From Candidatus Omnitrophota bacterium (lineage in GTDB: Bacteria > Omnitrophota > Gorgyraeia > Gygaellales > JAMWDD01), in contig JAQUNK010000014.1 in assembly GCA_028717645.1 (NCBI GenBank), positions 1 through 35,865 of the forward strand: a DNA stretch of 35,865 nucleotides. Reading direction: 5' to 3'. The first letter of the stretch is position 1, and every line of letters starts with the position of its first letter. The notes under the pieces were generated by a model. That model saw only the letters and a program-made list of their open reading frames with translations. It did no database searches and had not been told where the DNA came from. Shown one piece after another: positions 2,944 through 19,711 of the stretch. The translations under genes and the position numbers were made by a program.

Positions 2944-3082
2944 GGGTGTTGAGGTCCAGCGACCAACGGGTATGACACTAAAAGGGCGGAATAAAATGAA
3001 ACAATGGTATGAGGCATTATTTGAGAATTATGCTCACAAATACGACAAGGAATGCTTTGTCCGGGGGACTGTGGGTGAATGC

Positions 3083-3299
3083 GATTTTATCGAAGAGGAT
3101 CTGGATGCAACTGACAGAAAAGGGTTGCTTAGGCTTCTTTTTGACTATATAGTTATTAGTGATGGTAAAATAAAAGAGTTTGAGCTTTATGAACCTTTTA
3201 AGAGTCTGTATGAAAGAAAGGGTATAAAATGGCAACTCAAAGAAAATCAACGGGTTCTGGAAAAACCGGCCTGCGTTTCTACATACGCACATTCGGATG
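3083..3299 (+). repeat. Direct repeat copy 1: LSR 3' end plus miaB 5' end (left att-type junction)
   Basis: Near-identical to 18402-18618, including 'atggcaactcaaagaaaatcaacgggttctggaaaaaccggcctgcgt' and 'tacatacgcacattcggatg'. Confidence 0.95.
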
Positions 3300-3358
3300 A
3301 ACGTTGGCGTAAGTATCGAGAGATGATTTTGGGCATTCTGAAGAGATTAAGTGATTGT
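3298..3358 (+). repeat. Element left arm, copy 1
   Basis: 61 bp 'tgaacgttggcgtaagtatcgagagatgattttgggcattctgaagagattaagtgattgt', repeated at 8637-8697 with one mismatch. Confidence 0.95.
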
Positions 3359-3374
3359 GATAAAAAGGATTAGG

Positions 3375-4424
3375 ATGAAATTGCTTACTTATCAGGAAGT
3401 TGTCGATTCGCTAAACAAGAAAAAAAGGACAAAACATCTTTTGTTGGGTAACGGCTTTAGCATGTCTTATGATAAGAAGATATTCTCTTACAATGCTCTA
3501 AGCGATTTTGTGACTAAGACTAAGGATGAATTACTGCACAAGCTTTTCAGCATTATTGACACGGCTAATTTTGAGACAGTTATGCGAGAGCTTGACCTTT
3601 TTTATAAACTTGCCTCTGAATTTTCTGAAGATAAGAAATTAGCAAGAAAAATCAATAAGGCACGAGATTCTTTAAAAAAGAATATGGTGGATGCCATAAC
3701 CGAGTTACACCCAGAGCATGTTTTTAAGATACCTGCAAAATCAAGCAGTAAGTGCGCAGAGTTTTTGAAAAGTTATCTTGATTCTAATGGGCATGTTTTT
3801 TCTACTAATTATGATTTGTTGTTGTATTGGGTTCTTATGCGAAACCAAGGCCAAATTACAAACATAGTTGATGGTTTCGGTAAAGAATATATCTCAAAAG
3901 ATTCAGACGAATACGATCCAGATTATGAGCCAGAGTTTGGTGATTTAGAATGGGGTCCAAACCAAGCTGATCAGCATGTGCACTATGTGCATGGGGCTTT
4001 GCATATTTTCGACGAAGGAGTATCGATAATTAAAGAAATATATGACGAGAACTGTTTATTAGAAAATATAAAAAAGAGGATAAATAATAAAGAATATCCG
4101 GTTTTTGTAACAGCTGGTGATGGTAAGCAGAAACTTGCCCATATTTTGCATAATCAATATTTAGAGTATTGTTATAAGACGCTATCCGGCATTACTGGCT
4201 CTTTGGTCGTATTTGGGTTTGGGTTTGGAAAATATGATGAACATATTATCGATGCTATTAATAACGCGGCTAAAGGAAAAAAAGTAGATAAATTTGATAA
4301 GCTTTGGAGCATATACATTGGGATATATTCTAAGGATGATGAAAAACATGTAAATTCGATACTTGGAAAATTTAAATGCAAGAAAGTTCACTTATTTGAT
4401 TCAAAGACAGTTAATATTTGGTGA
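3375..4424 (+). CDS. DUF4917 / SIR2-like domain protein (putative defence component)
   Basis: 'HLLLGNGFSMSYD', 'FSTNYDLLLYW', 'HYVHGALHIF', 'GSLVVFGFGFGKYDEHI', a Rossmann SIR2-like pattern. The ATG at 3375 (after aaggat) is more likely than the tracked GTG at 3351, which lies inside the repeat arm. Confidence 0.65.
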   Translation: MKLLTYQEVVDSLNKKKRTKHLLLGNGFSMSYDKKIFSYNALSDFVTKTKDELLHKLFSIIDTANFETVMRELDLFYKLASEFSEDKKLARKINKARDSLKKNMVDAITELHPEHVFKIPAKSSSKCAEFLKSYLDSNGHVFSTNYDLLLYWVLMRNQGQITNIVDGFGKEYISKDSDEYDPDYEPEFGDLEWGPNQADQHVHYVHGALHIFDEGVSIIKEIYDENCLLENIKKRINNKEYPVFVTAGDGKQKLAHILHNQYLEYCYKTLSGITGSLVVFGFGFGKYDEHIIDAINNAAKGKKVDKFDKLWSIYIGIYSKDDEKHVNSILGKFKCKKVHLFDSKTVNIW

Positions 4425-4485
4425 TAGTGGTTAGAATTTAAATTGTGTCAGAATGCAGAAATTAAGTTATTAATGAGGTAAATGT

Positions 4486-5304
4486 ATGCCTTGGTCATCG
4501 CGACATCTTAAATGGCTTGTTGATACTGGGGAGCGGCTTAAAACTATCGATGGAAAGATTGTTGAAATTTGGGAGCTCCGACACAAGAAAGATGATGAGC
4601 TTTTATCGTTGTGGGCAAGACATTTTAGAAATCACTATTGTCGCGATGCCGAGATTGATTTCTTAAGAAATGGGACTGGTTATTCTCGGAAAGAGTATCT
4701 GGAAAGAATTAAATTCCCCGACGTAGCAGCTGCTCCTGGGCCTAGCATCAGGTCGGGTGATTTTGGGGAGATCCTTGTTGCCGATTATCTTCAATATCTG
4801 CTTGGTTATTGGGTTCCTCGTAGTCGTTATGCGAATAAGGCGGTTCGCAATGAATCAACCAAGGGGTGTGATATTATCGGCTTTAAATTTCTAAATAATG
4901 GTAAAGATGAAAATGACGATATAATGGCTATCTTTGAATCTAAAGCACAATTTTCTGGTACGAGAGCTACTCCTCGATTACAACTTGCCGTAGATGGATC
5001 CGCAAAAGATCTTGTAAGAAAAGCAGAGTCTTTAAATGCTATTAAACAAGATCTTTTTAATCATGGCTTGTTGGTAGATGCAAAAAAAGTGGAAAGATTC
5101 CAGAATTTAGAAGATCGTCCTTATCATGAAGTCTATGGAGCTGTTGCATTATTTTCTACTGAGGTTTTTGATAAAACTGAAATAGCCAAAACTAAAACAA
5201 AAACGCATCCTTTTTCTAAAGAACTTTTTTTGATTGTCATTCGTGGCGATACCATGATGTACCTTGTTCATGAGCTCTACAGGAGAGCAGCAGATGAAGC
5301 CTGA
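4486..5304 (+). CDS. HamA-like (DUF1837-like) PD-(D/E)XK nuclease
   Basis: 'SGDFGEILVADYLQYLLG', 'GCDIIGFKF', 'MAIFESKAQF' fit an E...D...ExK nuclease core; overlaps the downstream helicase gene. Confidence 0.55.
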   Translation: MPWSSRHLKWLVDTGERLKTIDGKIVEIWELRHKKDDELLSLWARHFRNHYCRDAEIDFLRNGTGYSRKEYLERIKFPDVAAAPGPSIRSGDFGEILVADYLQYLLGYWVPRSRYANKAVRNESTKGCDIIGFKFLNNGKDENDDIMAIFESKAQFSGTRATPRLQLAVDGSAKDLVRKAESLNAIKQDLFNHGLLVDAKKVERFQNLEDRPYHEVYGAVALFSTEVFDKTEIAKTKTKTHPFSKELFLIVIRGDTMMYLVHELYRRAADEA

Positions 5305-8300
5305 ACAAAGATCGAAAAATTTACTGGGTATTACTCGGTCGCAAGCAAAAATGTATGAATATAGCGTCCCTTCCCAGTACCATATTGCAATATCACGTGA
5401 TCCAGCGCGGCTTTTTCCTTTAACTATAGGTTTAATTGGTGATTTTGCTTCACAAATTTGTTCAAAAAGTAAGGATGAAGGATTGTTCATTGAATCACAG
5501 AATCATCTTAATTTTGCTGCCTATTTTTTCGATGCATACCTCGAATCAAAACTAAATCGATATTTAGATCCATACACTGGAGTTATGAGCTCAGCAGCCT
5601 ATTATTTATGTGATTTACCTGGTAGTTCTCACGTTTTAGCTAAACGTATTGATACAGAAGCGTTAGATCTGGATTGTCAGGGCTTAGAACGACTCATGGC
5701 ATGGTTATTGAAAGGAGATTTTACTGCCACTCTCGATAGACTAGACGGAGTGTATGGTGAATATATCAATGAGTTTTCTTCTAGCCTTATTGGTTACTAT
5801 GTAAACGGATCTGGAGAACAGCGTTGCCATGCTGCATTTGAAGGATTGAGAACGTATGTGTATAATAGCGGAACCCCTAGACAGCTTCTTTTCGCAGATA
5901 TCCTCTGTGCTTTGGGGAAGAAGCGCTTAGTTAATTCGACTTGGTATTGTCTTCCTAGATATTCAGGCCTTTCGCTTCCCGAGTGGCTGCCGATACTACA
6001 AAAGAAAGATTTCATAAAAGAATTGTGGCCAGCTCAGCATCTTCTCGGTGCTCAAGGGGTTTTCCAAGGTAAATCTGCTGTGGTTCAAATGCCGACAAGT
6101 GCGGGCAAAACGCGGGCTACGGAAATAATTATTCGCAGCGCCTTTCTTTCTAAGAGGACGGTCTTAACAGTGATAGTGGCTCCGTTTAAAGCCCTATGTC
6201 ATGAAATTAGAGATAATCTTGGTGAGGCATTTCGTGATGAGTCAGTTGATATTAATGAGCTTTCCGATGTTCTGCAAACAGATTTTGAGATAGATATTGC
6301 GTCGAAAAGGAATGAAATTCTAGTCATAACTCCGGAAAAACTTCTTTATGTGCTTAGACATATTCCTGAGCTAGCGAAGAAAATCGGCCTTTTGATTTAT
6401 GATGAAGGGCATCAATTTGATAGTCCGACACGCGGGGTAACATATGAATTGCTTCTTACATCGTTGAAAACACTAGTTTCAGATTCTGTTCAAACGGTTT
6501 TAATATCAGCTGTTATTAGTAACGCCGAATCTATTAACAATTGGCTTAATGGTGGAGATGCGCAAATAGTCTCGGGAACAAACCTAAATCCGACATATCG
6601 CACGTTGGCATTTACGAGCTGGCTAGATCAATTGGGGCGCCTAGACTTTGTTTCTCCAGAAAATCCAGAACAGCTAGATTTTTTTGTGCCTAGGGTAATT
6701 GAACAGTTTGATCTTAACCTTAGGCATAGGGAAAGAAAGCGGCGTAAATTTCCCGAAAAGGAGGATGGTCGTTCAGTCGCATTATACTTAGGGCTTAAAT
6801 TAATGCAAAATGGTAGTGTTGCAATCTTTTGCGGGACTAAAGCCACTGCTGCTGGATTTTGTGAGAAAATTATTGAAGCATACGACAGAGGATTATCTTT
6901 AAGAAGTCCAGATGGTTTTTCCGATCCGGGTGAGTTGCGTCGTCTCTGTTTCTTATATGAACGCAGCCTAGGGCCAGAATCCCCGGCTACTTTAAGTGCA
7001 AAGCTAGGGGTTTTTACTCATCACGGGAACACTCCGCACGGTATTAGACTTGCAGTGGAATATGCCATGAAAGAAGGATTGATACGGTTTGTAGTCTGTA
7101 CTTCGACTTTGGCGCAGGGAGTTAATCTTCCTATCCGATATCTTATCGTTGCAAGCATTTATCAGGGAGTGGACAGGATTAAAGTACGTGATTTTCATAA
7201 TTTAATAGGTCGTGCGGGTCGTTCAGGGATGCATACCGAAGGGAGCATAATTTTTGCCGATCATGAAGTTTATGATAAGAGGTATTCTAGAGACGATAAA
7301 TGGAAGTGGGTACAAGTCAGGAATCTTTTAGAACCAAAAAATTCTGAACCATGCGTGAGTACATTGCTATCTATTTTCGAACCCTTACGTAGTGATGATG
7401 AAAGATATACTATTCGAATGGAGCCACTTGATTTTGCCAAAACATACGTTGATAATCCGTCTGAATTAAATGATTTACCTGTGCAGTTTGCTAAAGAGCA
7501 TGCTGATAAAGGATTCTCGCAAGAAGGATTAGAAAGGCAGATTAAGGGGAAGATTCATATTATTGCTGCAATTGAAAGTTACTTAATGGCGCACTGGGAT
7601 GAGTCCGGGTCGAATATATCACAAGATAACATTGATGTATTGGCACGAGGGACGTTAGCCTATTATTTATCAGATGAAGAAAATCGCAATCGTTTAATAG
7701 AATTATTTCGACTTCTTGCAATAAATATCGAAAAGAAAGTAACAGATGCGGTGAGACGTAAAGTATTTGGGATTACTTTGTACGGTATTTCAGATTCGCT
7801 TATGATTGAGGCATGGGTTAATGAAAACATTGAACAGCTCATAGCAGCTGAGAGCCATGAGCAGCTTCTCGAAGTTTTATGGCCCGTACTAGTACAGCAT
7901 ATTCAGAATTTAACATTTAGAAGGTGCGATAAAGCCCAGGCTTTAAAAGAGCTTGCTTTCCAATGGATCCAAGGAGTGCCGTTTTGCGAATTATTTAAGA
8001 TTTTAACAGAAGCCAATTGCAAAATTGGGCATGGGAAGCGCCCACGTAATCCGCAAATAGAGTATGTAGTTGATATCTGCGAGAATGCGTTGTCGTATGA
8101 TGGGATGCTATTAGTTGGAGCTATAACTGAATTCTGTAAATTAATTCACTCAGAAAAGGAAGATTTAATAGAGAATCTTCAGTGGTTGCAGAAAAGACTT
8201 AAATATGGTTTATCGTCTCCAGCAGCAATTTCGTTATATGAATTGGGCTTTGCTGATCAAGTTATAGCAACCGATTTAAGTAGTGTGATAGGTACTGCTT

Positions 8301-8419
8301 TTTCGCGAAGAGAGGCAATCAAGGAAATTAGGAAAAATGAGGATAAAGTGCGAGAGTTGCTTAACAACTATCCGAGATACTTTAATCAATTGTTAAATAA
8401 TCTGCTGTTGGAAATATAG
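5294..8419 (+). CDS. HamB-like / Ski2-like SF2 helicase
   Basis: Walker A 'MPTSAGKT', 'LLIYDEGH' box, 'STLAQGVNLPIRYLIV', 'NLIGRAGRSG'. Start chosen at ATG 5294 (aggagagcagcagATG), overlapping the nuclease stop; the track starts at 5264. Confidence 0.75.
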   Translation: MKPEQRSKNLLGITRSQAKMYEYSVPSQYHIAISRDPARLFPLTIGLIGDFASQICSKSKDEGLFIESQNHLNFAAYFFDAYLESKLNRYLDPYTGVMSSAAYYLCDLPGSSHVLAKRIDTEALDLDCQGLERLMAWLLKGDFTATLDRLDGVYGEYINEFSSSLIGYYVNGSGEQRCHAAFEGLRTYVYNSGTPRQLLFADILCALGKKRLVNSTWYCLPRYSGLSLPEWLPILQKKDFIKELWPAQHLLGAQGVFQGKSAVVQMPTSAGKTRATEIIIRSAFLSKRTVLTVIVAPFKALCHEIRDNLGEAFRDESVDINELSDVLQTDFEIDIASKRNEILVITPEKLLYVLRHIPELAKKIGLLIYDEGHQFDSPTRGVTYELLLTSLKTLVSDSVQTVLISAVISNAESINNWLNGGDAQIVSGTNLNPTYRTLAFTSWLDQLGRLDFVSPENPEQLDFFVPRVIEQFDLNLRHRERKRRKFPEKEDGRSVALYLGLKLMQNGSVAIFCGTKATAAGFCEKIIEAYDRGLSLRSPDGFSDPGELRRLCFLYERSLGPESPATLSAKLGVFTHHGNTPHGIRLAVEYAMKEGLIRFVVCTSTLAQGVNLPIRYLIVASIYQGVDRIKVRDFHNLIGRAGRSGMHTEGSIIFADHEVYDKRYSRDDKWKWVQVRNLLEPKNSEPCVSTLLSIFEPLRSDDERYTIRMEPLDFAKTYVDNPSELNDLPVQFAKEHADKGFSQEGLERQIKGKIHIIAAIESYLMAHWDESGSNISQDNIDVLARGTLAYYLSDEENRNRLIELFRLLAINIEKKVTDAVRRKVFGITLYGISDSLMIEAWVNENIEQLIAAESHEQLLEVLWPVLVQHIQNLTFRRCDKAQALKELAFQWIQGVPFCELFKILTEANCKIGHGKRPRNPQIEYVVDICENALSYDGMLLVGAITEFCKLIHSEKEDLIENLQWLQKRLKYGLSSPAAISLYELGFADQVIATDLSSVIGTAFSRREAIKEIRKNEDKVRELLNNYPRYFNQLLNNLLLEI

Positions 8420-8585
8420 AAGGTAAATTCCAGCATGTTTTAGTGGAATAATTACGAGTTTTCTTGGGACGGTAATTATGGAATGGCTTCATTCGGGAGT
8501 GGAACCGATGAACGTACGTGACATTTCAGGCCTTTTTTGACCGAAATCTGCGACATTACGTGATGCTAAAAATATATATAACACT

Positions 8586-8639
8586 ATGATTAATAAAGAG
8601 ATAACAAAAAAGAAAGTTTTTCTCCGCACCTTCGGTTGA
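8586..8639 (+). pseudogene. Truncated miaB 5' end of divergent sequence (MINKEITKKKVFLRTFG*)
   Basis: ATG at 8586, in-frame TGA at 8637-8639 at the crossover point; the peptide ends in RTFG, matching RTFG-CQMN of the resident MiaB, with different codons and upstream sequence. Confidence 0.7.
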
Positions 8640-8697
8640 ACGTTGGCGTAAGTATCGAGAGATGATTTTGGGCATTTTGAAGAGATTAAGTGATTGT
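8637..8697 (+). repeat. Element left arm, copy 2 (internal att-like junction)
   Basis: 60 of 61 bp identical to 3298-3358. Confidence 0.95.
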
Positions 8698-8724
8698 AAA
8701 TAGGTCTTAGAAAATAAATAATAG

Positions 8725-9261
8725 ATGAGAAGAACGCAGAGATATATAAAGAAATTACGCCTCAAGGTTACAGAAGCTAGATCAAAAGGCCATACTTATG
8801 AGGCTATACGCAAGAAATATGGTTGTTCTCCTGCTACGATTTCAAAATGGAGCAAAGGGATACAGCCATACAGATATTGCGTAAACTGCGGGGAAATAAA
8901 TTCTGAAAAACTCGAACAGTATCATCCGGATAAAACAAATAAACCAGATTATATCGTAACGTTATGTTCAAACTGTCGTTTAGCTATTTCCAGTCACCAA
9001 TTTAGAGAAAAAATAGAAGAATCGAAGGGCATTCTTAAACAAATCCAACTAATTTTACCTCTTCAAGCCGAATCTAAGTCTCAAATACTCCCAATTTCAT
9101 TAAATCCCCAAATTACTAGAGAGCTTAGCAAGGGGGCGTTATCTTTAGCTGCTGTTTCTTTGAGCGTAGGAGCGCTTTTAGATAAAGAAGTTCCCTTCTC
9201 TATAAGGATTTTGGCCAGCCTAGCCGCAGTCCAGTCTTTTAAGAAAGCCATAAATCTATAA
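8725..9261 (+). CDS. HTH protein with CxxC...CxxC zinc-finger-like segment and hydrophobic C-terminus
   Basis: 'SKGHTYEAIRKKYGCSPATISKWSKG' HTH; 'CVNCGEINSEKLEQYHPDKTNKPDYIVTLCSNC' HNH/Zn-like; C-terminal 'ALSLAAVSLSVGALLDKEVPFSIRILASLAAV'. Confidence 0.5.
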   Translation: MRRTQRYIKKLRLKVTEARSKGHTYEAIRKKYGCSPATISKWSKGIQPYRYCVNCGEINSEKLEQYHPDKTNKPDYIVTLCSNCRLAISSHQFREKIEESKGILKQIQLILPLQAESKSQILPISLNPQITRELSKGALSLAAVSLSVGALLDKEVPFSIRILASLAAVQSFKKAINL

Positions 9262-9406
9262 CTTACCTAATTTTTTTAAAAGATCATTGCTTCATTTTTA
9301 CTACATTTAACACTACAAATAGTAGTATAAATTGTAATATAGTTTCATTTTAGCTATTTTTAAATTTGCTTAAATTATTAGAGATAAATCACCAATTAGG
9401 AAAAAC

Positions 9407-9435
9407 TTGACACAATACAGAATATAGTATATACT
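9407..9435 (+). promoter_or_regulatory. Putative strong sigma70 promoter of the CBASS-like operon (TTGACA-17-TATACT)
   Basis: TTGACA 9407-9412, 17-bp spacer, TATACT 9430-9435. Confidence 0.75.
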
Positions 9436-9441
9436 TTGTAA

Positions 9442-9548
9442 TAAGATACAACTAACAGTGGTGAGTTTGGAGAGGGAACCTCCACGGTAAAAAAGTAAAA
9501 TCTCCACGAGCCTAATGCTCCTGCATTTTTGTGCTTGTGGAGTTTTTT
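9442..9548 (+). ncRNA. Structured leader RNA / candidate attenuator or short ncRNA
   Basis: Lies between the promoter and an intrinsic terminator. Hairpin TGGAG(9468-9472)/CTCCA(9480-9484); two copies of CTCCAC (9480-9485, 9502-9507) can compete for GTGGAG (9537-9542). Confidence 0.55.
9502..9548 (+). terminator. Intrinsic terminator upstream of the patatin gene
   Basis: CTCCACGAGC (9502-9511) pairs with GCTTGTGGAG (9533-9542, one G-U), inner hairpin AATGC/GCATT, then TTTTTT 9543-9548. Confidence 0.8.
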
Positions 9549-9567
9549 ATATTTATAGGTAAAAAAT

Positions 9568-10494
9568 ATGCCTACGGGAGAAATATTCAGAATTTTGGCA
9601 ATCGATGGTGGAGGATACCGCGGTGTTTATGCCGCTTATATATTAAAACGTATTGAGGAAGAATATGGTGTTGACTGGTTGAAGAAAATTAATCTAATAG
9701 CCGGAACTAGTACAGGAGCAATTATTGCGGCAGCATTAGCCTGCAATGTGCCTGCGAGCAAAATATTAGATTTTTATAAGAAATATGGTCAACGGATTTT
9801 TAAGAAGCGATTTCTTCATTGGTTAGGATTATTTGCGAGCAGATACGACAATAAGGAATTAGAAAATATCTTAAAAGATCTCTATGGCGATGAGCGAAAA
9901 TTAGGCCAAATTGACATACCTTTAGTTTTGCCTGCATCTGATATTAGGAATGGCTGCGTCCACGTACTTAAATCTTCGTACGATAAAGAATTTTATCGTG
10001 ATAAAAATAGACTAGTATATAAAGCAGTATTAGCTTCTTGTTCTGCTCCTACTTATTTTGACCCTTATGATATGGATAATTATCTTTTAGCAGATGGAGG
10101 ATTATGGGCGAATAATCCAGCTCTTATTGCTGCTATTGAAGCTAAGCGCCGCCTTAGCCAGAATATGGATAATTTAATGATTCTATCAATTGGCACAGGC
10201 GAAGGGAGAAAATTCTATTCGCAGGATGGACATTGGTGGAAAAAATTTTTGGGATGGGGATTTTTGACAAGGTGGGGAAGGCAAAAATTCATCGAGATGC
10301 TTTTCAGCCTACAGTCTCAAACAACTAATAATATGATTGGACTTTTATTTGAACCAAGTCAGATATTGAGGATTAATTTTAAATCGGATAAAACTTTAAA
10401 ATTAGATGATCCCAATGAGTATAACGATTTAATTTGTTTAGCTGATAAAGACTTTACATATAATTCACAAAGAATCCAAGAATTCTTGGATTAG
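9568..10494 (+). CDS. capV: Patatin-like phospholipase, CapV-type CBASS effector
   Basis: 'AIDGGGYRGVYAAYIL', 'GTSTGAIIAA' (GxSxG), 'ADGGLWANNP' (catalytic Asp); directly followed by a CD-NTase gene. Confidence 0.85.
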   Translation: MPTGEIFRILAIDGGGYRGVYAAYILKRIEEEYGVDWLKKINLIAGTSTGAIIAAALACNVPASKILDFYKKYGQRIFKKRFLHWLGLFASRYDNKELENILKDLYGDERKLGQIDIPLVLPASDIRNGCVHVLKSSYDKEFYRDKNRLVYKAVLASCSAPTYFDPYDMDNYLLADGGLWANNPALIAAIEAKRRLSQNMDNLMILSIGTGEGRKFYSQDGHWWKKFLGWGFLTRWGRQKFIEMLFSLQSQTTNNMIGLLFEPSQILRINFKSDKTLKLDDPNEYNDLICLADKDFTYNSQRIQEFLD

Positions 10495-10511
10495 AGTATA
10501 GGAGGTCAGAA

Positions 10512-11714
10512 ATGATACAAGATGATCGTATGGTATTATTGGATGATGTATTAGAGAAATATGTCGATTCCTTAAAAATTTCCGATTCTCAGTTTGAAGA
10601 AGCAAGGCTTCGATACGAATCGGTAGGAAAATGGTTACGAGAAAGCTCTGCATTAAAGGATCGGAGACCTGAAATATATACGCAAGGGTCTTTTCTTTTT
10701 GGTACGGTAGTGAGACCTTTAACAGAAGAAGATAGGTATGATATTGATTTAGTATGCCGTTTAAACTATCTTAAAAATGAAATTTCGCAGAAGGATTTAA
10801 AAGAAAAATTTGGTAAGGAATTGACTGATTACGCTCTTGCTAAGCAAATGAAGAGCAATCCTAAGAAAAAAAGACGCTGTTGGACGATAGAATATGAAGA
10901 TGATATCCATTTCCATATGGATTTTTTACCTTCTATTCCAGATCAAGATATGCGCTACAGAAAATATTTGTTGGAATCGGGCGTGAGAGAAGCTTTAACA
11001 CAGACAAGTATTTGTATTACTGATGATACATTGGATAATTATAGCCGTATTGACGATGATTGGTTAAAAACTAATCCTAAGGGGTATGCGGAGTGGTTTA
11101 AGTCCAGAATGAGACTTATTTTCGAGAAGGGAGCTGTATCTCTTCTTGAAAAACGTCTATATGCTTCAGTAGAAGCTATTCCTGTTCATAAAATTAGAAC
11201 ACCTCTGCAAAAGACTATTCAGCTTCTTAAGCGGCATCGTGACATTATGTTTGAGAATGAGCCTAAGAAAAAGCCAATTTCGATGATTATAACCACTTTA
11301 GCAGCGCATGCCTATCAGAATGAAGCAAGATTGATTGATGCATTGAAGCGTGTAGTAGATGATATGGATAAATATATTGAGAAAGATGGGGCTACTAAAA
11401 CGGTTATAAGAAATCCAGTTATGCCTGATGAAAACTTTGCAGATAAATGGGTAGAGGATCCTGCGCTTGAGAAAAATTTTTATGATTGGTTAGGGAAAAT
11501 CAGGAAAGATTTACAGGAGCTTATGACGAAGACATCATCTAGAGATATGATTGAATATCTGGGTATTCCGCTTGGCAGCAAAGTTATGGGGAAAGTCCTC
11601 GAGAAATATGGTTATGGTGCCGATATCCAGAGGGCCACGCCTGTAAAATCTTATCCTGAGGTTAAAATTAATCCTTCACAACCATGGAGTAGCAATGGCA
11701 GGTGTTGGTTATGA
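10512..11714 (+). CDS. CD-NTase (SMODS/DncV-like nucleotidyltransferase)
   Basis: 'YTQGSFLFGTVVRPLTEEDRYDIDLVCRL' (GSF...DxD) and third acidic residue in 'FHMDFLPSI'. Confidence 0.85.
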   Translation: MIQDDRMVLLDDVLEKYVDSLKISDSQFEEARLRYESVGKWLRESSALKDRRPEIYTQGSFLFGTVVRPLTEEDRYDIDLVCRLNYLKNEISQKDLKEKFGKELTDYALAKQMKSNPKKKRRCWTIEYEDDIHFHMDFLPSIPDQDMRYRKYLLESGVREALTQTSICITDDTLDNYSRIDDDWLKTNPKGYAEWFKSRMRLIFEKGAVSLLEKRLYASVEAIPVHKIRTPLQKTIQLLKRHRDIMFENEPKKKPISMIITTLAAHAYQNEARLIDALKRVVDDMDKYIEKDGATKTVIRNPVMPDENFADKWVEDPALEKNFYDWLGKIRKDLQELMTKTSSRDMIEYLGIPLGSKVMGKVLEKYGYGADIQRATPVKSYPEVKINPSQPWSSNGRCWL

Positions 11715-12345
11715 TGAGCTTATTCAGAAGCAGTTTCAAGAGCTGCATGTTAAATATCCAAGCTTAAGTCTTAAGCAGATTGATAATAACTATTATCTTA
11801 TTGGTTTCTTAGGTTTTTCCTCAGAATTCAATGGGGTAAGAATTCAAGACGGGTTCGAGTTATTTATTACGATCCCATGTGAGTATCCAAATCGAATGCC
11901 CGCCATTAAAGAAATAGGCGGACGAATACCAATAGATTTTCATCATAGTGGAGACGAATTATGTTTAGGTACACCGGTAGATAATTGGATAAAATTTTGT
12001 AAACGTAAAACTCTTATGGGATTTATTGAACTTTTAGTGATTCCATTTCTTTTCTCATTTTGTTTTAGGGAAAAAACAGGTCGTATGCCGTTTGGTCAGC
12101 GTTCGCATTATGGAAGAGGAATTATGGAATTCTATTGTGAATTGTTTAAAATAAAAGATTTTATTGCCGCTCAGAAGTTTCTTAAAATATTAGCCTCTGG
12201 AGAATATAGTCAAGACAAGAGATGCCCATGTAATTCGGGAAGAAGACTTAAAAAATGTCACGGATCAATGATTCTTGAAGCCATGAACACGGTTCCGTTA
12301 GAATACTTTCAATATGAGTACAAGCAAAGTTTATCTCCAGGATAG
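11695..12345 (+). CDS. E2-like conjugating enzyme domain with C-terminal SEC-C motif (short type II CBASS accessory)
   Basis: 'PCEYPNRMPAIKEIGGRIPIDFHHSGDELCLGTPVD' resembles the E2 H-x-N...CL active-site region; 'KRCPCNSGRRLKKCHGS' is SEC-C; overlaps the CD-NTase stop by 20 bp. Confidence 0.75.
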   Translation: MAGVGYDELIQKQFQELHVKYPSLSLKQIDNNYYLIGFLGFSSEFNGVRIQDGFELFITIPCEYPNRMPAIKEIGGRIPIDFHHSGDELCLGTPVDNWIKFCKRKTLMGFIELLVIPFLFSFCFREKTGRMPFGQRSHYGRGIMEFYCELFKIKDFIAAQKFLKILASGEYSQDKRCPCNSGRRLKKCHGSMILEAMNTVPLEYFQYEYKQSLSPG

Positions 12346-12378
12346 GCCGTAGTATTACAATTGTACAAAGGAGAGGTT

Positions 12379-13014
12379 ATGAAACGAATAATTTTTGCCA
12401 TCCATGGTATCAGAAGCCCAAAGCAAGGGAACTGGATATATGATTTTACTAATTTCACTGAACAAGACCCGAGGTTTAAAGATGATATTTTCGTGCCTTA
12501 TTATTATGGGTTTGTTTTAGCTACCGTATCTGTCTTTCCGGTTTTTAAATATGAGAAAGTTAAAGAAGTTAAAACAGTATTAAGAAAAATAATTAATGAT
12601 AACCCTAATTGTGAGCTTAATATAGTAGCGCATAGTTATGGCACTGAACTAAGCTTTTGGGCAATAAAAACTAGCGGTGAAGATGGAAAGCCGCCTATAA
12701 TTGCGAATAAAGTCATACTTGTCTCTAGCGTTGTATCTCGTTTTAATGAAATTCCATATAATTCTACTTTAAGAGCAGGAAAAATAAAACAGTTACATTG
12801 TTATTGTAGCTATAAAGATAAAGTATGTAATTTTGCTCCTTTTGGACATTCAGGATGTTTTGGTTTCTCAAGAGATAGATATGATACTAGGTGTTATCCA
12901 AAGCCATTCGATGACTTAGAAATTTACAATCATCAAGTCGAAAGCTTGGGACATTCTGCTTATTTCGAAGATGTTAAATACTTCAAGGAATGGTTAGGCA
13001 TAATAGCGAGTTAG
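12379..13014 (+). CDS. Alpha/beta hydrolase (lipase/esterase-like)
   Basis: 'IFAIHGIRSPKQGNW', nucleophile elbow 'NIVAHSYGTELSFW', late His in 'SLGHSAYF'. ATG 12379 follows aaaggagagg. Confidence 0.65.
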   Translation: MKRIIFAIHGIRSPKQGNWIYDFTNFTEQDPRFKDDIFVPYYYGFVLATVSVFPVFKYEKVKEVKTVLRKIINDNPNCELNIVAHSYGTELSFWAIKTSGEDGKPPIIANKVILVSSVVSRFNEIPYNSTLRAGKIKQLHCYCSYKDKVCNFAPFGHSGCFGFSRDRYDTRCYPKPFDDLEIYNHQVESLGHSAYFEDVKYFKEWLGIIAS

Positions 13015-13606: not shown

Positions 13607-13633
13607 TATTTTTTTTAACATTGAAAGGCACAA
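13607..13633 (+). repeat. Upstream repeat 'TTTTTTTAACATTGAAAGGCACAA', copy 1
   Basis: Repeated at 13884-13907; degenerate copy 'ATTTTGAAAAGCACAATTATATAC' at 13260-13283. Confidence 0.8.
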
Positions 13634-13655
13634 TTGAACAATACGAGGAGAAGAT

Positions 13656-13883
13656 ATGTTTAAGAAAGTCTGGACTAGTGTAAATCTGAGTAAGAAAGAG
13701 ATATGTTTTCTTGATGAGATATCTAAAAACTGTAAGTTCTCCGGAGGAAGAAAATTACGTAGAACTTCTATACTTAGAGCATTGTTGGTCGCAGGCAAGA
13801 GGTTAAATATTGATGTAAACAGAGTCAAAAGCGAGAAGGAGCTTAAAGAAAGAGTACTGGTATCTTTTAAGAAGCTGAATTAA
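13656..13883 (+). CDS. Small putative RHH/CopG-like DNA-binding protein, paralogue 2
   Basis: 'FSGGRKLRRTSILRALLVAGKRLNIDVNRVKSEKELKERVL'; RBS gaggag. Confidence 0.5.
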   Translation: MFKKVWTSVNLSKKEICFLDEISKNCKFSGGRKLRRTSILRALLVAGKRLNIDVNRVKSEKELKERVLVSFKKLN

Positions 13884-13907
13884 TTTTTTTAACATTGAAA
13901 GGCACAA
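13884..13907 (+). repeat. Upstream repeat 'TTTTTTTAACATTGAAAGGCACAA', copy 2
   Basis: Same sequence as near 13610-13633; lies just upstream of the methyltransferase gene. Confidence 0.8.
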
Positions 13908-13931
13908 AACAACATTACAAATACTGCTAAT

Positions 13932-15164
13932 ATGAATAAGTTAATCTGCGGAGATAATTTAGAGGAATTGAAAAAGATTGAAAAGGAAAGCGTTGATCTT
14001 ATTTACATTGACCCGCCATTTTTTTCAAATAAACAATATGAAGTAGTATGGAGGGATGAAGCAGAAATACGGAGTTTTGAAGATAGATGGGAAGGCGGGA
14101 TAGAGCATTATATCGGGTGGATGAAGCCAAGAGTAGAGGCGATGTATGAAGTTTTAAAACCCACTGGCTCATTTTATCTGCATTGTAATTGGTATGCAAA
14201 TGCTCATTTAAGGATAATGCTGGATGAGATATTTGGAGAAAGCAATTTTCAAAATGAAATAATCTGGGATTATGGGGCAAGGGCAACAGTTAGAAAGTCG
14301 GGTTTTCCCAGAAAACATGATACCATCCTTTTCTATGCTAAAAGTAAAAATTATACCTTTAATCTTTTGTATAAACCTTATAAAGACCCTTTGATGGAAA
14401 GATATAACAAAATAGATTCTAAGGGAAAGCGGTACGCCTTAATAAAAAGAAAAAGAACTGATGGTACTATATATTACGGTAAATGTTATCCAAAAGAAGG
14501 AGCTCCAGAAACCGATGTCTGGAATATTTCTTTAATGGCTTCTACTTCTAGAGAGCGATTGGGATACCCCACTCAAAAACCAGAAGCATTATTAGAAAAG
14601 ATAATAAAAGCATCTTCAAATAGAAATGATACGGTTTTAGACGCTTTTTGCGGTTGTGGTACTGCTTTAGCTGCGGCACAAAAATTAGGGAGGCAATGGA
14701 TAGGAATAGATATATCCCCGACCGCTATAAAACTAATAGAGCGGAGATTAAATCAATTAGGGACAAAGAAAGACACAGACTATATAGTTGCAGGAACACC
14801 TACTACTGTAAAAGATTTGTTAAAATTGAAGCCATTTGAATTTCAGAATTGGGTTATTGATGCATTAGGAGCAAAGCATAGCCGAAAGAAAATCGGGGAT
14901 ATGGGGCTGGATGGTCATTTTGATAAAGATATTTTTCATAAAGATGCTGGTATTCAAGTCAAGCAATCCGAAGATATTGGAAGGAATGTAATTGATAATT
15001 TTAAGTCTGCCCTTGAAAGGGCAAAATATAAAGAAGGCATTGTTGTAGCTTTTAGTTTTGGCAAAGGTGCGTGTGAAGAAGTGGCGAGGCTTAAAAACTC
15101 TGGAGAGATAGATATTAAATTAATAACGGTAGAAGATTTACTACATAAGAAAGTAAAGCTATGA
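13932..15164 (+). CDS. Beta-class DNA methyltransferase fused to an Mrr-like PD-(D/E)XK domain
   Basis: Motif IV 'DLIYIDPPF' precedes motif I 'VLDAFCGCGTALAAA'; C-terminal 'KPFEFQNWVIDALGA...MGLDGHF...AGIQVKQSEDIGRNVIDNF' Mrr-like. Confidence 0.75.
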   Translation: MNKLICGDNLEELKKIEKESVDLIYIDPPFFSNKQYEVVWRDEAEIRSFEDRWEGGIEHYIGWMKPRVEAMYEVLKPTGSFYLHCNWYANAHLRIMLDEIFGESNFQNEIIWDYGARATVRKSGFPRKHDTILFYAKSKNYTFNLLYKPYKDPLMERYNKIDSKGKRYALIKRKRTDGTIYYGKCYPKEGAPETDVWNISLMASTSRERLGYPTQKPEALLEKIIKASSNRNDTVLDAFCGCGTALAAAQKLGRQWIGIDISPTAIKLIERRLNQLGTKKDTDYIVAGTPTTVKDLLKLKPFEFQNWVIDALGAKHSRKKIGDMGLDGHFDKDIFHKDAGIQVKQSEDIGRNVIDNFKSALERAKYKEGIVVAFSFGKGACEEVARLKNSGEIDIKLITVEDLLHKKVKL

Positions 15165-16964: not shown

Positions 16965-18626
16965 ATGAAAGCCGCAATTTATATAAGAGTAAGCACAGAA
17001 GATCAAGCACGAGAAGGCACTTCTCTTGAAGTGCAGCGGGAGTTTCTTGAAAGCTATGCCAAAAGAGAGAACTGGGAGATTTATTATCCTGAAAAGGATA
17101 ATATTTACAATGATGATGGCTATTCTGGTTATACCCTTGAAAGGCCCGCTCTATCTAGGTTACTTAAAGATGCGAAGCTTAAGAAATTTGATGTAGTCGT
17201 TGTTTACAAAATTGACAGGTTTGCGCGAAATAACCGTCTTTTGCTTAATCTTGTTGAAGAACTCAATAATGCAGGGATCGGGTTTAAATCTGCAACAGAG
17301 GCATTTGATACTGTAAGCGCCGCAGGAAAATTGGCCTTGAGCATGCTTGGCACTGTTGCGCAATTCGAAAGAGATAGAATTATCGAAAGAGTTTTTCCAG
17401 GCATGGTAAAAGGAGCGGAAAAGGGCAATTGGCAGGGCGCAAGATATTCTCCTTATGGCTACAGCTATAACAAATTTGATTCCGACAAGAAATTAAAAGT
17501 CGTTAAGGAAGAAGCTGATATTGTAAAACTGATATATACATTATATCTTTCTGGACAAAGCACTACTCAGATCGCAGGTTATCTCTATAAGAGAGAATAC
17601 AAGACAAGAAGCGGAGGTAAGTTTCATTCAAAACTTGTTTGTGATATTCTGAAAAATCCTATTTATACCGGAAAGATAATATGGAATCGCCATCATTATG
17701 ATAAAAAACAGAAGACTCTGAGGGGATATAAATACGTAAAGAATGATCCTTCGGAAGTTGTTTCTGGCATGGGTAAGCATGAGCCAATAATTAACGAAGC
17801 AGAATTTGAAGCAGTGCAAAAGAAGCTTGAAAATAACAGAAAAGGTATGATGGTAAGAAAAGGTAGTCAGGAATATCCGCTTACCGGTATTTTGATATGC
17901 GGAAACTGCGGGCATAAATTACAAGGTTGTCTAAGTATCGCGTCGAGAGAAAACAAGAAGACAAAAAGTAAGAGAAGGTATTACCGCTGTAGTGGAAGGG
18001 CAACACATTATGTTGACTGTCACGAGCCTTATATACAGTCGGAAAATATCGAAGAACAGATTTATGCGATTATTGACGTAGTATTGAATTATCCAGAACT
18101 TGATGAACGAAGAATAAGCAATCTCATAGAAATGGCAGCGACAACAAGAAATGATAATATCGAAGATGAGATAAAGATTATTGACGGAAAAATTAAAGAG
18201 AACGTTACGAAGCAGGAGAAACTTGGCAAGGCTTTTGCAGAGGATTCGATTGCTGAAGGTGCCTTCAAGAATCTCATTTTGCCCTTGAGGGATGAGCAGA
18301 AGTCTCTTGAAGGGAAGAAACAGAAGCTGAAATTAAATCTGATTAAACGGGAACGCTCGGGAGAATATCAAAAAATACTTAATATGGTTATTAATCATTT
18401 TGATTTTATCAAAGAGGACTTGGATGCAACTGGCAGAAAAGGGTTGCTTAGGCTTCTTTTTAACTATATAGTTATTAGTGATGGTAAAATAAAAGAGTTT
18501 GAGCTTTATGAACCTTTTAAGAGTCTATATGAAAGAAAGGGTATAAAATGGCAACTCAAAGAAAATCAACGGGTTCTGGAAAAACCGGCCTGCGTCTCTA
18601 CATACGCACATTCGGATGCCAAATGA
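16965..18626 (+). CDS. Large serine recombinase (integrase of the island)
   Basis: 'AAIYIRVSTEDQAREGTSLEVQREFLE', 'KIDRFARN', 'GTVAQFERDRIIERV', zinc ribbon 'CGNCGHKLQGC...YYRCSGR...C', coiled-coil region; 3' end overlaps the miaB 5' end by 79 bp. Confidence 0.9.
   Translation: MKAAIYIRVSTEDQAREGTSLEVQREFLESYAKRENWEIYYPEKDNIYNDDGYSGYTLERPALSRLLKDAKLKKFDVVVVYKIDRFARNNRLLLNLVEELNNAGIGFKSATEAFDTVSAAGKLALSMLGTVAQFERDRIIERVFPGMVKGAEKGNWQGARYSPYGYSYNKFDSDKKLKVVKEEADIVKLIYTLYLSGQSTTQIAGYLYKREYKTRSGGKFHSKLVCDILKNPIYTGKIIWNRHHYDKKQKTLRGYKYVKNDPSEVVSGMGKHEPIINEAEFEAVQKKLENNRKGMMVRKGSQEYPLTGILICGNCGHKLQGCLSIASRENKKTKSKRRYYRCSGRATHYVDCHEPYIQSENIEEQIYAIIDVVLNYPELDERRISNLIEMAATTRNDNIEDEIKIIDGKIKENVTKQEKLGKAFAEDSIAEGAFKNLILPLRDEQKSLEGKKQKLKLNLIKRERSGEYQKILNMVINHFDFIKEDLDATGRKGLLRLLFNYIVISDGKIKEFELYEPFKSLYERKGIKWQLKENQRVLEKPACVSTYAHSDAK
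18402..18618 (+). repeat. Direct repeat copy 2: LSR 3' end plus miaB 5' end (right att-type junction)
   Basis: Matches 3083-3299. Confidence 0.95.
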
Positions 18627-19711
18627 ACGTCCGCGATTCGGAGGTGATTTGCGGGCTTTTGCAAAAGGCTGGATACAAAATAACCGAAGATGAACAAAAG
18701 GCAGATGCAGTAATTTTTAATACTTGTTCCGTGCGGCAGCATGCCGAAGACAAGGTTTGGTCTGCGGTCGGTAGATGTAAAGTCGGGATCATTGGTATTT
18801 CCGGATGTATGGCGAATAACTATCGTGAGGCGATCTTTGAAAAAGCACCAAGAGTGGATTTTGTGGTCGGTACACGCGATATCGCGAAGATCCCCGCAAT
18901 TTTAAAAGAGATAGAGAGGCATAAGGGTAATCCTTTATTAGAAAAGAAAATCTATGAAACGGATGCTGAGCTGCGTGAAGACGAAATATACCATACCGGT
19001 TTTCACCTAGACGATAAACATGCCTTTGTGGTGATCTCCGAGGGCTGTGAAAATTACTGCGCATATTGTGTTGTGCCTTATGTGCGGGGCACTTTGCATT
19101 TTCGCGATCATCAGGATATCCTGAAAGAGATAAAGGAAGATATTGCTAAAGGGATCAGCAAGATCACCCTTCTAGGCCAGAATGTGAATGCCTATAAATA
19201 CAAAGACAATGATTTTATTGGCCTGGTCCAGCTGGTCAATTCGGTTAAAGGGTTAAAAGAGTTCGGGTTCATTACTTCGCATCCTAAGGATACAAGCCTG
19301 GAATTATTCAAGGCACTGGCTGAATGTAAAAAGTTCAATAAATATCTGCATTTGCCGGTTCAATCCGGCTCTGACAGGATCTTAAAGCTGATGAACCGCG
19401 GATACACCAGAGAATTTTATTTGAATTTGGCGGCCAGTTATCGTAGAATAATCAAAGACGGCACTTTAAGCACAGACATCATCATCGGTTTTCCTTCTGA
19501 AACAGAAAAAGACTTCCAGGATACTTACAACCTGGTTAACGACATCCAGTTCGATAAGGCCTATATTTTCAAATATTCCGTGCGGCCGAATACCAAAGCG
19601 GCTGAGTTTACCGACGATGTAGAAAAAGCAGAAAAAGAACGCAGGCATAAATTGATCTTGGACCTGCAAAAATCCATCTCGAGGAAAAAGAATGCGAAGA
19701 AGAATAATTAG
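18548..19711 (+). CDS. miaB: tRNA-2-methylthio-N6-dimethylallyladenosine synthase MiaB
   Basis: 'IRTFGCQMNVRDSEVICGLL', radical-SAM 'GCENYCAYCVVPYVRG', 'HLPVQSGSDRILKLMNRGYTR'. Confidence 0.95.
   Translation: MATQRKSTGSGKTGLRLYIRTFGCQMNVRDSEVICGLLQKAGYKITEDEQKADAVIFNTCSVRQHAEDKVWSAVGRCKVGIIGISGCMANNYREAIFEKAPRVDFVVGTRDIAKIPAILKEIERHKGNPLLEKKIYETDAELREDEIYHTGFHLDDKHAFVVISEGCENYCAYCVVPYVRGTLHFRDHQDILKEIKEDIAKGISKITLLGQNVNAYKYKDNDFIGLVQLVNSVKGLKEFGFITSHPKDTSLELFKALAECKKFNKYLHLPVQSGSDRILKLMNRGYTREFYLNLAASYRRIIKDGTLSTDIIIGFPSETEKDFQDTYNLVNDIQFDKAYIFKYSVRPNTKAAEFTDDVEKAEKERRHKLILDLQKSISRKKNAKKNN

What the first reader, a model, noticed from the sequence alone, without database searches (positions are those of the whole stretch)
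3375..8419. Candidate three-gene defence unit: DUF4917/SIR2-like + HamA-like nuclease + HamB-like helicase
The nuclease/helicase pair resembles Hachiman (HamA DUF1837 nuclease, HamB SF2 helicase): GDFGE...GCDIIGFKF...FESKAQ next to a 1042-aa DEGH-box helicase with overlapping stop/start. The SIR2-like DUF4917 gene directly upstream, in the same unit bounded by att-like sites, is not part of canonical Hachiman as I know it. It may be a third component such as an NAD-acting effector or regulator.
Basis: partly seen in the sequence, partly recalled or inferred. Interest (0 to 1): 0.75.

Follow-up and report, generated by a model that had tools for sequence, protein, structure and literature searches.

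The report
Stacked phage-defence cassettes beside miaB
The three genes are real, but they are two separate known defence modules (a lone SIR2-type gene and an ordinary two-gene Hachiman system) carried together on mobile DNA that a site-specific recombinase has stacked at the start of the bacterium's miaB gene.

Summary
The three genes are present as described: DUF4917 (3375-4424), HamA (4486-5304) and HamB (5294-8419). HamA and HamB match PADLOC Hachiman models at 371 and 1368 bits, and HamA keeps its D/E/K catalytic residues. DUF4917 is PADLOC's single-gene candidate PDC-S21. Its AlphaFold model matches the SIR2 subunit of SIR2-HerA (E 1.5e-10), so "SIR2-like" holds. "Third Hachiman component" does not. 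Of 80 related HamA loci, 79 have HamB beside HamA and none has DUF4917 nearby. Plasmid and viral DUF4917 records lack HamA, and the closest DUF4917 (74% identical) stands alone. At genome level, 1 of 49 HamA genomes has DUF4917, against a background of 9 of 384. The att-like sites are real and mark a larger structure. A large serine recombinase (16965-18626) sits at the 5' end of miaB, with its stop codon inside miaB in 14 of 14 loci examined. Core sites at 3286, 8625 and 18605 divide the window into a recombinase-less 5.3-kb segment (DUF4917-HamAB) and a 10-kb recombinase element (CBASS, a methylase-Mrr fusion). Similar stacks, some with recombinase-less segments, occur at miaB in related genomes and often carry defence genes. 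Whether those segments move in trans is untested.

The parts
2972..3373 (+). Fusion ORF: N-terminus of a SAM methyltransferase (about 2996-3082; in relatives this gene precedes miaB) joined to the 3' end of a second, otherwise lost, recombinase gene (3083-3299), reading through the core into the right half-site
   Evidence: 217-nt 97% match to 18402-18618; 76-82% DNA match of the 5' part to methyltransferase genes of G063, G051 and G079
3286..3358 (+). Site A: core CGCACATTCGGATG plus right half-site (P' arm); left arm is a recombinase 3' end
   Evidence: 73-nt direct repeat with 8625-8697, 96%
3375..4424 (+). DUF4917 / PDC-S21, SIR2-fold predicted NADase, 349 aa
   Evidence: PF16263 139 bits, PDLC04960 357 bits; AF2 pLDDT 85 and Foldseek to SIR2 of SIR2-HerA E 1.5e-10
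4486..5304 (+). HamA, Hachiman nuclease, 272 aa; D129, E151, K153 present
   Evidence: PF08878 above cut-off, PDLC00161 371 bits; residues invariant in 81/81
5294..8419 (+). HamB, Hachiman SF2 helicase, 1041 aa (PTSAGKT, DEGH, GRAGR motifs)
   Evidence: PDLC00188 1368 bits; 8VX9 HamB E 5e-51; motifs
8586..8636 (+). Displaced miaB-type start (MINKEITKKKVFLRTFG), left arm of site B
   Evidence: 84% DNA match to the equivalent site in G069 and 78% to G129; pattern absent from 2.5 Mb of control strands
8625..8697 (+). Site B: core CGCACCTTCGGTTG plus P' arm; right border of the DUF4917-HamAB segment
8725..9261 (+). HTH / zinc-finger-like protein, first gene of the recombinase element
   Evidence: weak HTH_23 match
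9568..13014 (+). CBASS: patatin effector (9568), DncV-like cyclase (10512), E2-like protein (11695), plus an alpha/beta hydrolase (12361)
   Evidence: PADLOC and NCBIfam CBASS matches for the first three
13932..15164 (+). DNA methylase fused to an Mrr-type nuclease domain
   Evidence: PF01555 180 bits and PF04471 36 bits
16965..18626 (+). Large serine recombinase; its stop codon lies inside miaB
   Evidence: PF00239, PF07508, PF13408; frame analysis
18605..18618 (+). Site C: core inside the miaB reading frame (right border of the recombinase element)
18548..19711 (+). miaB (target gene) with a rebuilt 5' end overlapping the recombinase 3' end
   Evidence: MiaB-family matches in 26/26 relatives

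Best explanation
The 3.4-8.4 kb stretch holds two independent defence modules that travel together. DUF4917 is a stand-alone SIR2-fold protein that probably destroys NAD+ when triggered by infection (fold and conserved residues shown, activity inferred). HamA and HamB form a canonical Hachiman complex: HamB senses damaged or ended DNA and releases the HamA nuclease, which clears the cell's DNA (inferred from the characterised homologues). Both are cargo of DNA inserted by large serine recombinases at a fixed site in the 5' coding part of miaB. Each insertion displaces the old miaB start to its left and supplies a new one on its right, so miaB stays whole and further insertions can stack (sites shown, order and movement inferred). 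DUF4917-HamAB is a recombinase-less segment between sites A and B; the neighbouring element between sites B and C carries CBASS, a methylase-Mrr protein and the recombinase.
For: Families. SIR2 fold; conserved GNGFS, N145, H206, D288 across 20 homologues. HamA catalytic triad intact. No co-occurrence of DUF4917 with HamAB; lone closest DUF4917. Different base composition: DUF4917 33.8% GC, HamA and HamB 39-40%, flanks 45-46%. Recombinase-miaB arrangement. Recombinase stop codon inside miaB in 14/14 loci. Empty miaB loci in G328, G051, G063. Stacked sites in G079, G069, G412, G335: with 0 pattern hits in 2.5 Mb of control strands. Defence cargo at miaB elsewhere.
Against: No experiment. The 61-nt gap with no promoter-like match and the same orientation would allow co-transcription of DUF4917 with HamAB, so some cooperation here cannot be excluded. 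The recombinase-less segment could be a decayed element rather than a mobile unit. The contig is from an unnamed, fragmented assembly, so the join at 3083 could be an assembly error. The site pattern was written after seeing the sites.
Confidence: 0.82

Rival explanations
1. A three-gene Hachiman variant in which DUF4917 is a dedicated NAD-acting effector or regulator of HamAB.
For: Same strand, 61-nt gap, same att-bounded segment. Three-gene Hachiman systems exist (HamMAB, PMC12799240).
Against: 0/80 HamA loci, 0/13 plasmid and 0/5 viral HamA records with DUF4917; genome-level 1/49 against background 9/384. HamA catalytic residues intact, whereas in virtually all protease-HamA (HamMAB-type) systems they are lost. 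DUF4917 is listed as a single-gene candidate in PADLOC and stands without HamAB in many records.
Confidence: 0.05
2. A recent, lineage-specific pairing: independent modules by origin, but transcribed together and mutually reinforcing here (for example DNA clearance first, NAD loss as back-up).
For: Close spacing; no promoter-like match in the gap.
Against: Only one genome shows the pairing; no relative of the pair was found.
Confidence: 0.12
3. About the carrier rather than the genes: the DUF4917-HamAB segment is the decayed remainder of a recombinase element whose recombinase end was lost, with miaB restored by recombination and old half-sites left behind.
For: A recombinase 3' end remnant is fused to the methyltransferase at 3083, so decay has happened at this locus. 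Site B's left arm resembles native miaB starts.
Against: Four recombinase-less segments in three genomes all end exactly at a core preceded by a miaB-type start, which repeated decay would have to produce each time.
Confidence: 0.4
4. Assembly chimera: the repeat copies were joined wrongly and the segment lies elsewhere.
For: 58-contig draft assembly; repeats at all three sites.
Against: Copies differ at 3-4% of bases, so an assembler need not merge them; the same kind of site arrangement recurs in other genomes.
Confidence: 0.06

Closest known systems
Hachiman (HamAB; ECOR31 structures 8VX9, 8VXA, 8VXC, 8VXY; PMC12278908)
   Same: HamA and HamB families, gene order, overlapping stop/start, intact D/E/K nuclease motif, helicase motifs
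   Different: No difference in architecture found; sequence is distant from ECOR31 (HamA E 0.01, HamB E 5e-51)
PDC-S21 / DUF4917 (PADLOC single-gene defence candidate)
   Same: 357-bit full-length match; stand-alone gene in defence surroundings elsewhere
   Different: Here directly upstream of Hachiman; no functional test of the family found
SIR2 subunit of SIR2-HerA / Nezha, and KomBC
   Same: SIR2 fold, conserved N and H
   Different: No HerA partner; about 15% identity; TM about 0.6
HamMAB (protease-HamA plus HamM nuclease; PMC12799240)
   Same: A third gene beside HamAB
   Different: There a protease is fused to HamA and HamA's own active site is nearly always lost; here neither holds
Staphylococcal cassette chromosome (Ccr large serine recombinases at rlmH; general knowledge, not tested)
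   Same: Large serine recombinases, one chromosomal gene as target, stacked cassettes, some lacking recombinase, defence cargo
   Different: Target is the 5' coding part of miaB and each insertion supplies a new start for it; the recombinase gene itself ends inside the target gene
dusA 5'-end genomic islands (PMC4482086)
   Same: Islands at the 5' end of a tRNA-modification gene
   Different: Different integrase family and target gene

Membership tests
Hachiman | HamA (DUF1837) with D...ExK nuclease motif | tested here: met
   PF08878 above cut-off; D129/E151/K153 invariant in 81 sequences
Hachiman | HamB SF2 helicase encoded directly downstream | tested here: met
   PDLC00188 1368 bits; 11-nt gene overlap; 79/80 relatives share the arrangement
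Hachiman | DNA clearance on sensing damaged DNA; phage protection | not testable with these tools
   needs experiment
Three-component Hachiman with DUF4917 | DUF4917 recurrently adjacent to HamAB | tested here: not met
   0/80 genome loci, 0/13 plasmid and 0/5 viral HamA records
HamMAB-type Hachiman | HamA active site lost, effector supplied by extra gene | tested here: not met
   HamA motif intact (contrast)
PDC-S21 / DUF4917 | full-length profile match | tested here: met
   PDLC04960 residues 1-349, 357 bits
SIR2 NADase effectors | SIR2 fold with conserved N and H | tested here: met
SIR2 NADase effectors | NAD+ hydrolysis | not testable with these tools
   needs assay
Large serine recombinase integrative element | recombinase with resolvase, recombinase and zinc-ribbon domains | tested here: met
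Large serine recombinase integrative element | left and right half-sites at a conserved chromosomal target, empty target in relatives | tested here: met
   sites B and C; empty miaB loci G328, G051, G063
Mobile recombinase-less cassette | excision or integration in trans | not testable with these tools
   only the static sites are seen

The most novel reading that the evidence does not exclude
miaB in this order of (probably) Omnitrophota is a landing site for a cassette system. miaB-specific large serine recombinases stack elements, and small recombinase-less cassettes (here DUF4917-HamAB; elsewhere a SIR2-like gene plus GIY-YIG, a 365-aa gene, a ClC-type channel) are moved in trans, each bringing its own replacement miaB start. 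The recombinase gene spans the crossover core, so its C-terminus is short when integrated at miaB and longer in the circular or stacked state, which could act as a switch.
Probability: 0.35. Interest if true: 0.66.

Novelty: new variant of a known kind. Interest (0 to 1): 0.42.

Why it matters
It removes a false lead (a third Hachiman component) and replaces it with a testable one: a defence-rich landing site in a little-studied phylum, with precise borders, that shows how unrelated defence genes come to sit side by side. The recombinases have an exactly placed target (the conserved GCQMN codons of miaB) and are candidates for DNA-integration tools. Neighbouring genes inside one att-bounded segment should not be read as one system without co-occurrence data. 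The defence genes themselves are ordinary members of known families; the 'new variant' rating refers to the miaB stacking arrangement.

Tried and rejected
A single-sequence HamA scan of genome contigs found nothing; the alignment scan gave 80 loci. Rfam: no match. PDB sequence search with the DUF4917 profile: only chance matches. Searching HamA's upstream neighbours for a recurrent partner: mixed defence genes (BrxA in 4, pAgo in 3, type I restriction, KwaB), no DUF4917. Reading site B simply as a second recombinase junction was dropped: its left arm is a miaB-type start, not a recombinase end. Literature: no paper in the library on DUF4917 function or on miaB as a serine-recombinase target.

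Full report
What is there. Three + strand genes lie at 3375-4424, 4486-5304 and 5294-8419. DUF4917 matches PF16263 (139 bits) and PADLOC PDC-S21 (357 bits). The second gene matches HamA (PF08878 above cut-off; PADLOC 371 bits) and the third HamB (PADLOC 1368 bits). The nearest solved structures are the ECOR31 Hachiman chains: HamB E 5e-51, HamA only E 0.01. The three catalytic HamA residues D129, E151 and K153 are invariant in 81 sequences, and HamB has its Walker A, DEGH and GRAGR motifs.

DUF4917 is SIR2-like. An AlphaFold model from 20 homologues (pLDDT 85, pTM 0.86) matches the SIR2 subunit of E. coli SIR2-HerA (E 1.5e-10, TM about 0.6) and, more weakly, KomBC, ThsA and sirtuins. GNGFS, N145, H206 and D288 are conserved. 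That it cleaves NAD+ is inference.

It is not a Hachiman component by co-occurrence. I collected 80 HamA relatives (48-70% identity) from the GTDB genome collection. HamB sits beside HamA in 79 of them; 70 have at least 1.5 kb of upstream DNA; none carries DUF4917 within the flanks held, an upper 95% bound of about 4%. On plasmids, 13 HamA and 33 DUF4917 records share none. None of 22 viral DUF4917 loci has HamA or HamB and none of 5 viral HamA loci has DUF4917. In 384 genomes of the phylum, 4 have HamA and 9 have DUF4917; only the window's genome has both. Among 49 HamA genomes, 1 has DUF4917, on another contig, which equals background. The closest DUF4917 (74% identical, G197) has no HamA or HamB near it. 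Elsewhere DUF4917 stands by restriction genes. GC content differs between DUF4917 (33.8%) and HamAB (39-40%). Three-gene Hachiman does exist (HamMAB, PMC12799240), but there HamA is fused to a protease and has nearly always lost its active site; here it has not.

The att-like sites are real and belong to a larger structure. The 73-nt repeat at 3286-3358 and 8625-8697 consists of a core plus a right half-site. A 217-nt copy of the recombinase 3' end lies at 3083-3299 and at 18402-18618. The large serine recombinase 16965-18626 overlaps the start of miaB at 18548. Members of the same recombinase family sit directly before miaB in other genomes of the order. In all 14 such loci, window included, the recombinase frame runs through the core and stops at the TGA formed by the conserved miaB codons ATG-AAY. 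Empty miaB loci exist in G328, G051 and G063, the latter two with a methyltransferase upstream; the 5' part of window ORF 2972-3373 is the start of that methyltransferase, cut off and fused to a recombinase remnant. The phylum is probably Omnitrophota: G373, of the same class, holds a contig with the same length as the Omnitrophota record L050.

Stacking. Site B's left arm encodes MINKEITKKKVFLRTFG, a miaB-type start, 84% and 78% identical in DNA to the equivalent sites of G069 and G129. A pattern for such sites finds them upstream of miaB, on the coding strand (plus two hits on the miaB-less contig of G415, one of them on the reverse strand, and one chance-like hit in G335), and never in 2.5 Mb of control strands; the pattern was written after the sites were seen. 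Several sites in a row occur in the window, G079, G069, G412 and G335. Segments without a recombinase are the window's DUF4917-HamAB (5339 bp), two in G079 (about 1.3 and 1.7 kb; one holds a SIR2_2 gene) and one in G069 (about 1.5 kb, a ClC-type channel judged by eye only). Cargo at miaB elsewhere includes type II and type I restriction systems, DSR1-like proteins, a caspase, and NsnA-like and ThiF proteins. Where a recombinase end meets a right half-site (window site A, G412, G415), its frame continues past the core and gives a longer C-terminus.

Interpretation. Shown: gene identities, lack of co-occurrence, sites, recombinase-miaB geometry, recurrence. Inferred: that DUF4917 is an NADase, that HamAB works as in ECOR31, the order of insertions, and that recombinase-less segments move. 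Two histories fit the DUF4917-HamAB segment: a cassette moved in trans, or a decayed element. I put them near even. The closest known parallel is the staphylococcal cassette chromosome (general knowledge); dusA islands (PMC4482086) are a parallel for the target type. No paper on a miaB-specific serine recombinase was found in the library searched.

Noticed in passing
window 9568-13014: Short CBASS operon (patatin effector, DncV-like cyclase, E2-like protein with SEC-C motif) followed by an alpha/beta hydrolase of unknown role.
   Followed up: partly
window 13932-15164: N4/N6 DNA methylase fused to an Mrr-type nuclease domain: a methylase and restriction domain in one chain.
   Followed up: partly
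14 recombinase-miaB loci; window 3083-3373; L160/L161; L165: The recombinase gene spans the crossover core: stop codon inside miaB when integrated, longer C-terminus at stacked or circular-type junctions.
   Followed up: partly
L153 (G079) upstream of miaB: Three displaced miaB-type starts in a row, with two recombinase-less segments, one holding a SIR2-like gene; one half-site is about 80% identical to the window's.
   Followed up: partly
L008 (E. coli plasmid CP083496.1): HamA 62% identical to the window's; the helicase downstream is annotated as three separate ORFs (6809-9966), possibly broken.
   Followed up: no
window 13607-13644 and 13881-13918: 38-nt direct repeat (87%) around a 236-nt gap before the methylase gene; unexplained.
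   Followed up: no
window 9460-9550: Inverted repeat ending in a run of T just before the CBASS operon, seen by eye; no Rfam match.
   Followed up: partly
L004 / L026 (G373): Another HamA of the same class has a LexA-type repressor gene (by eye) shortly upstream, which would fit damage-linked control.
   Followed up: no
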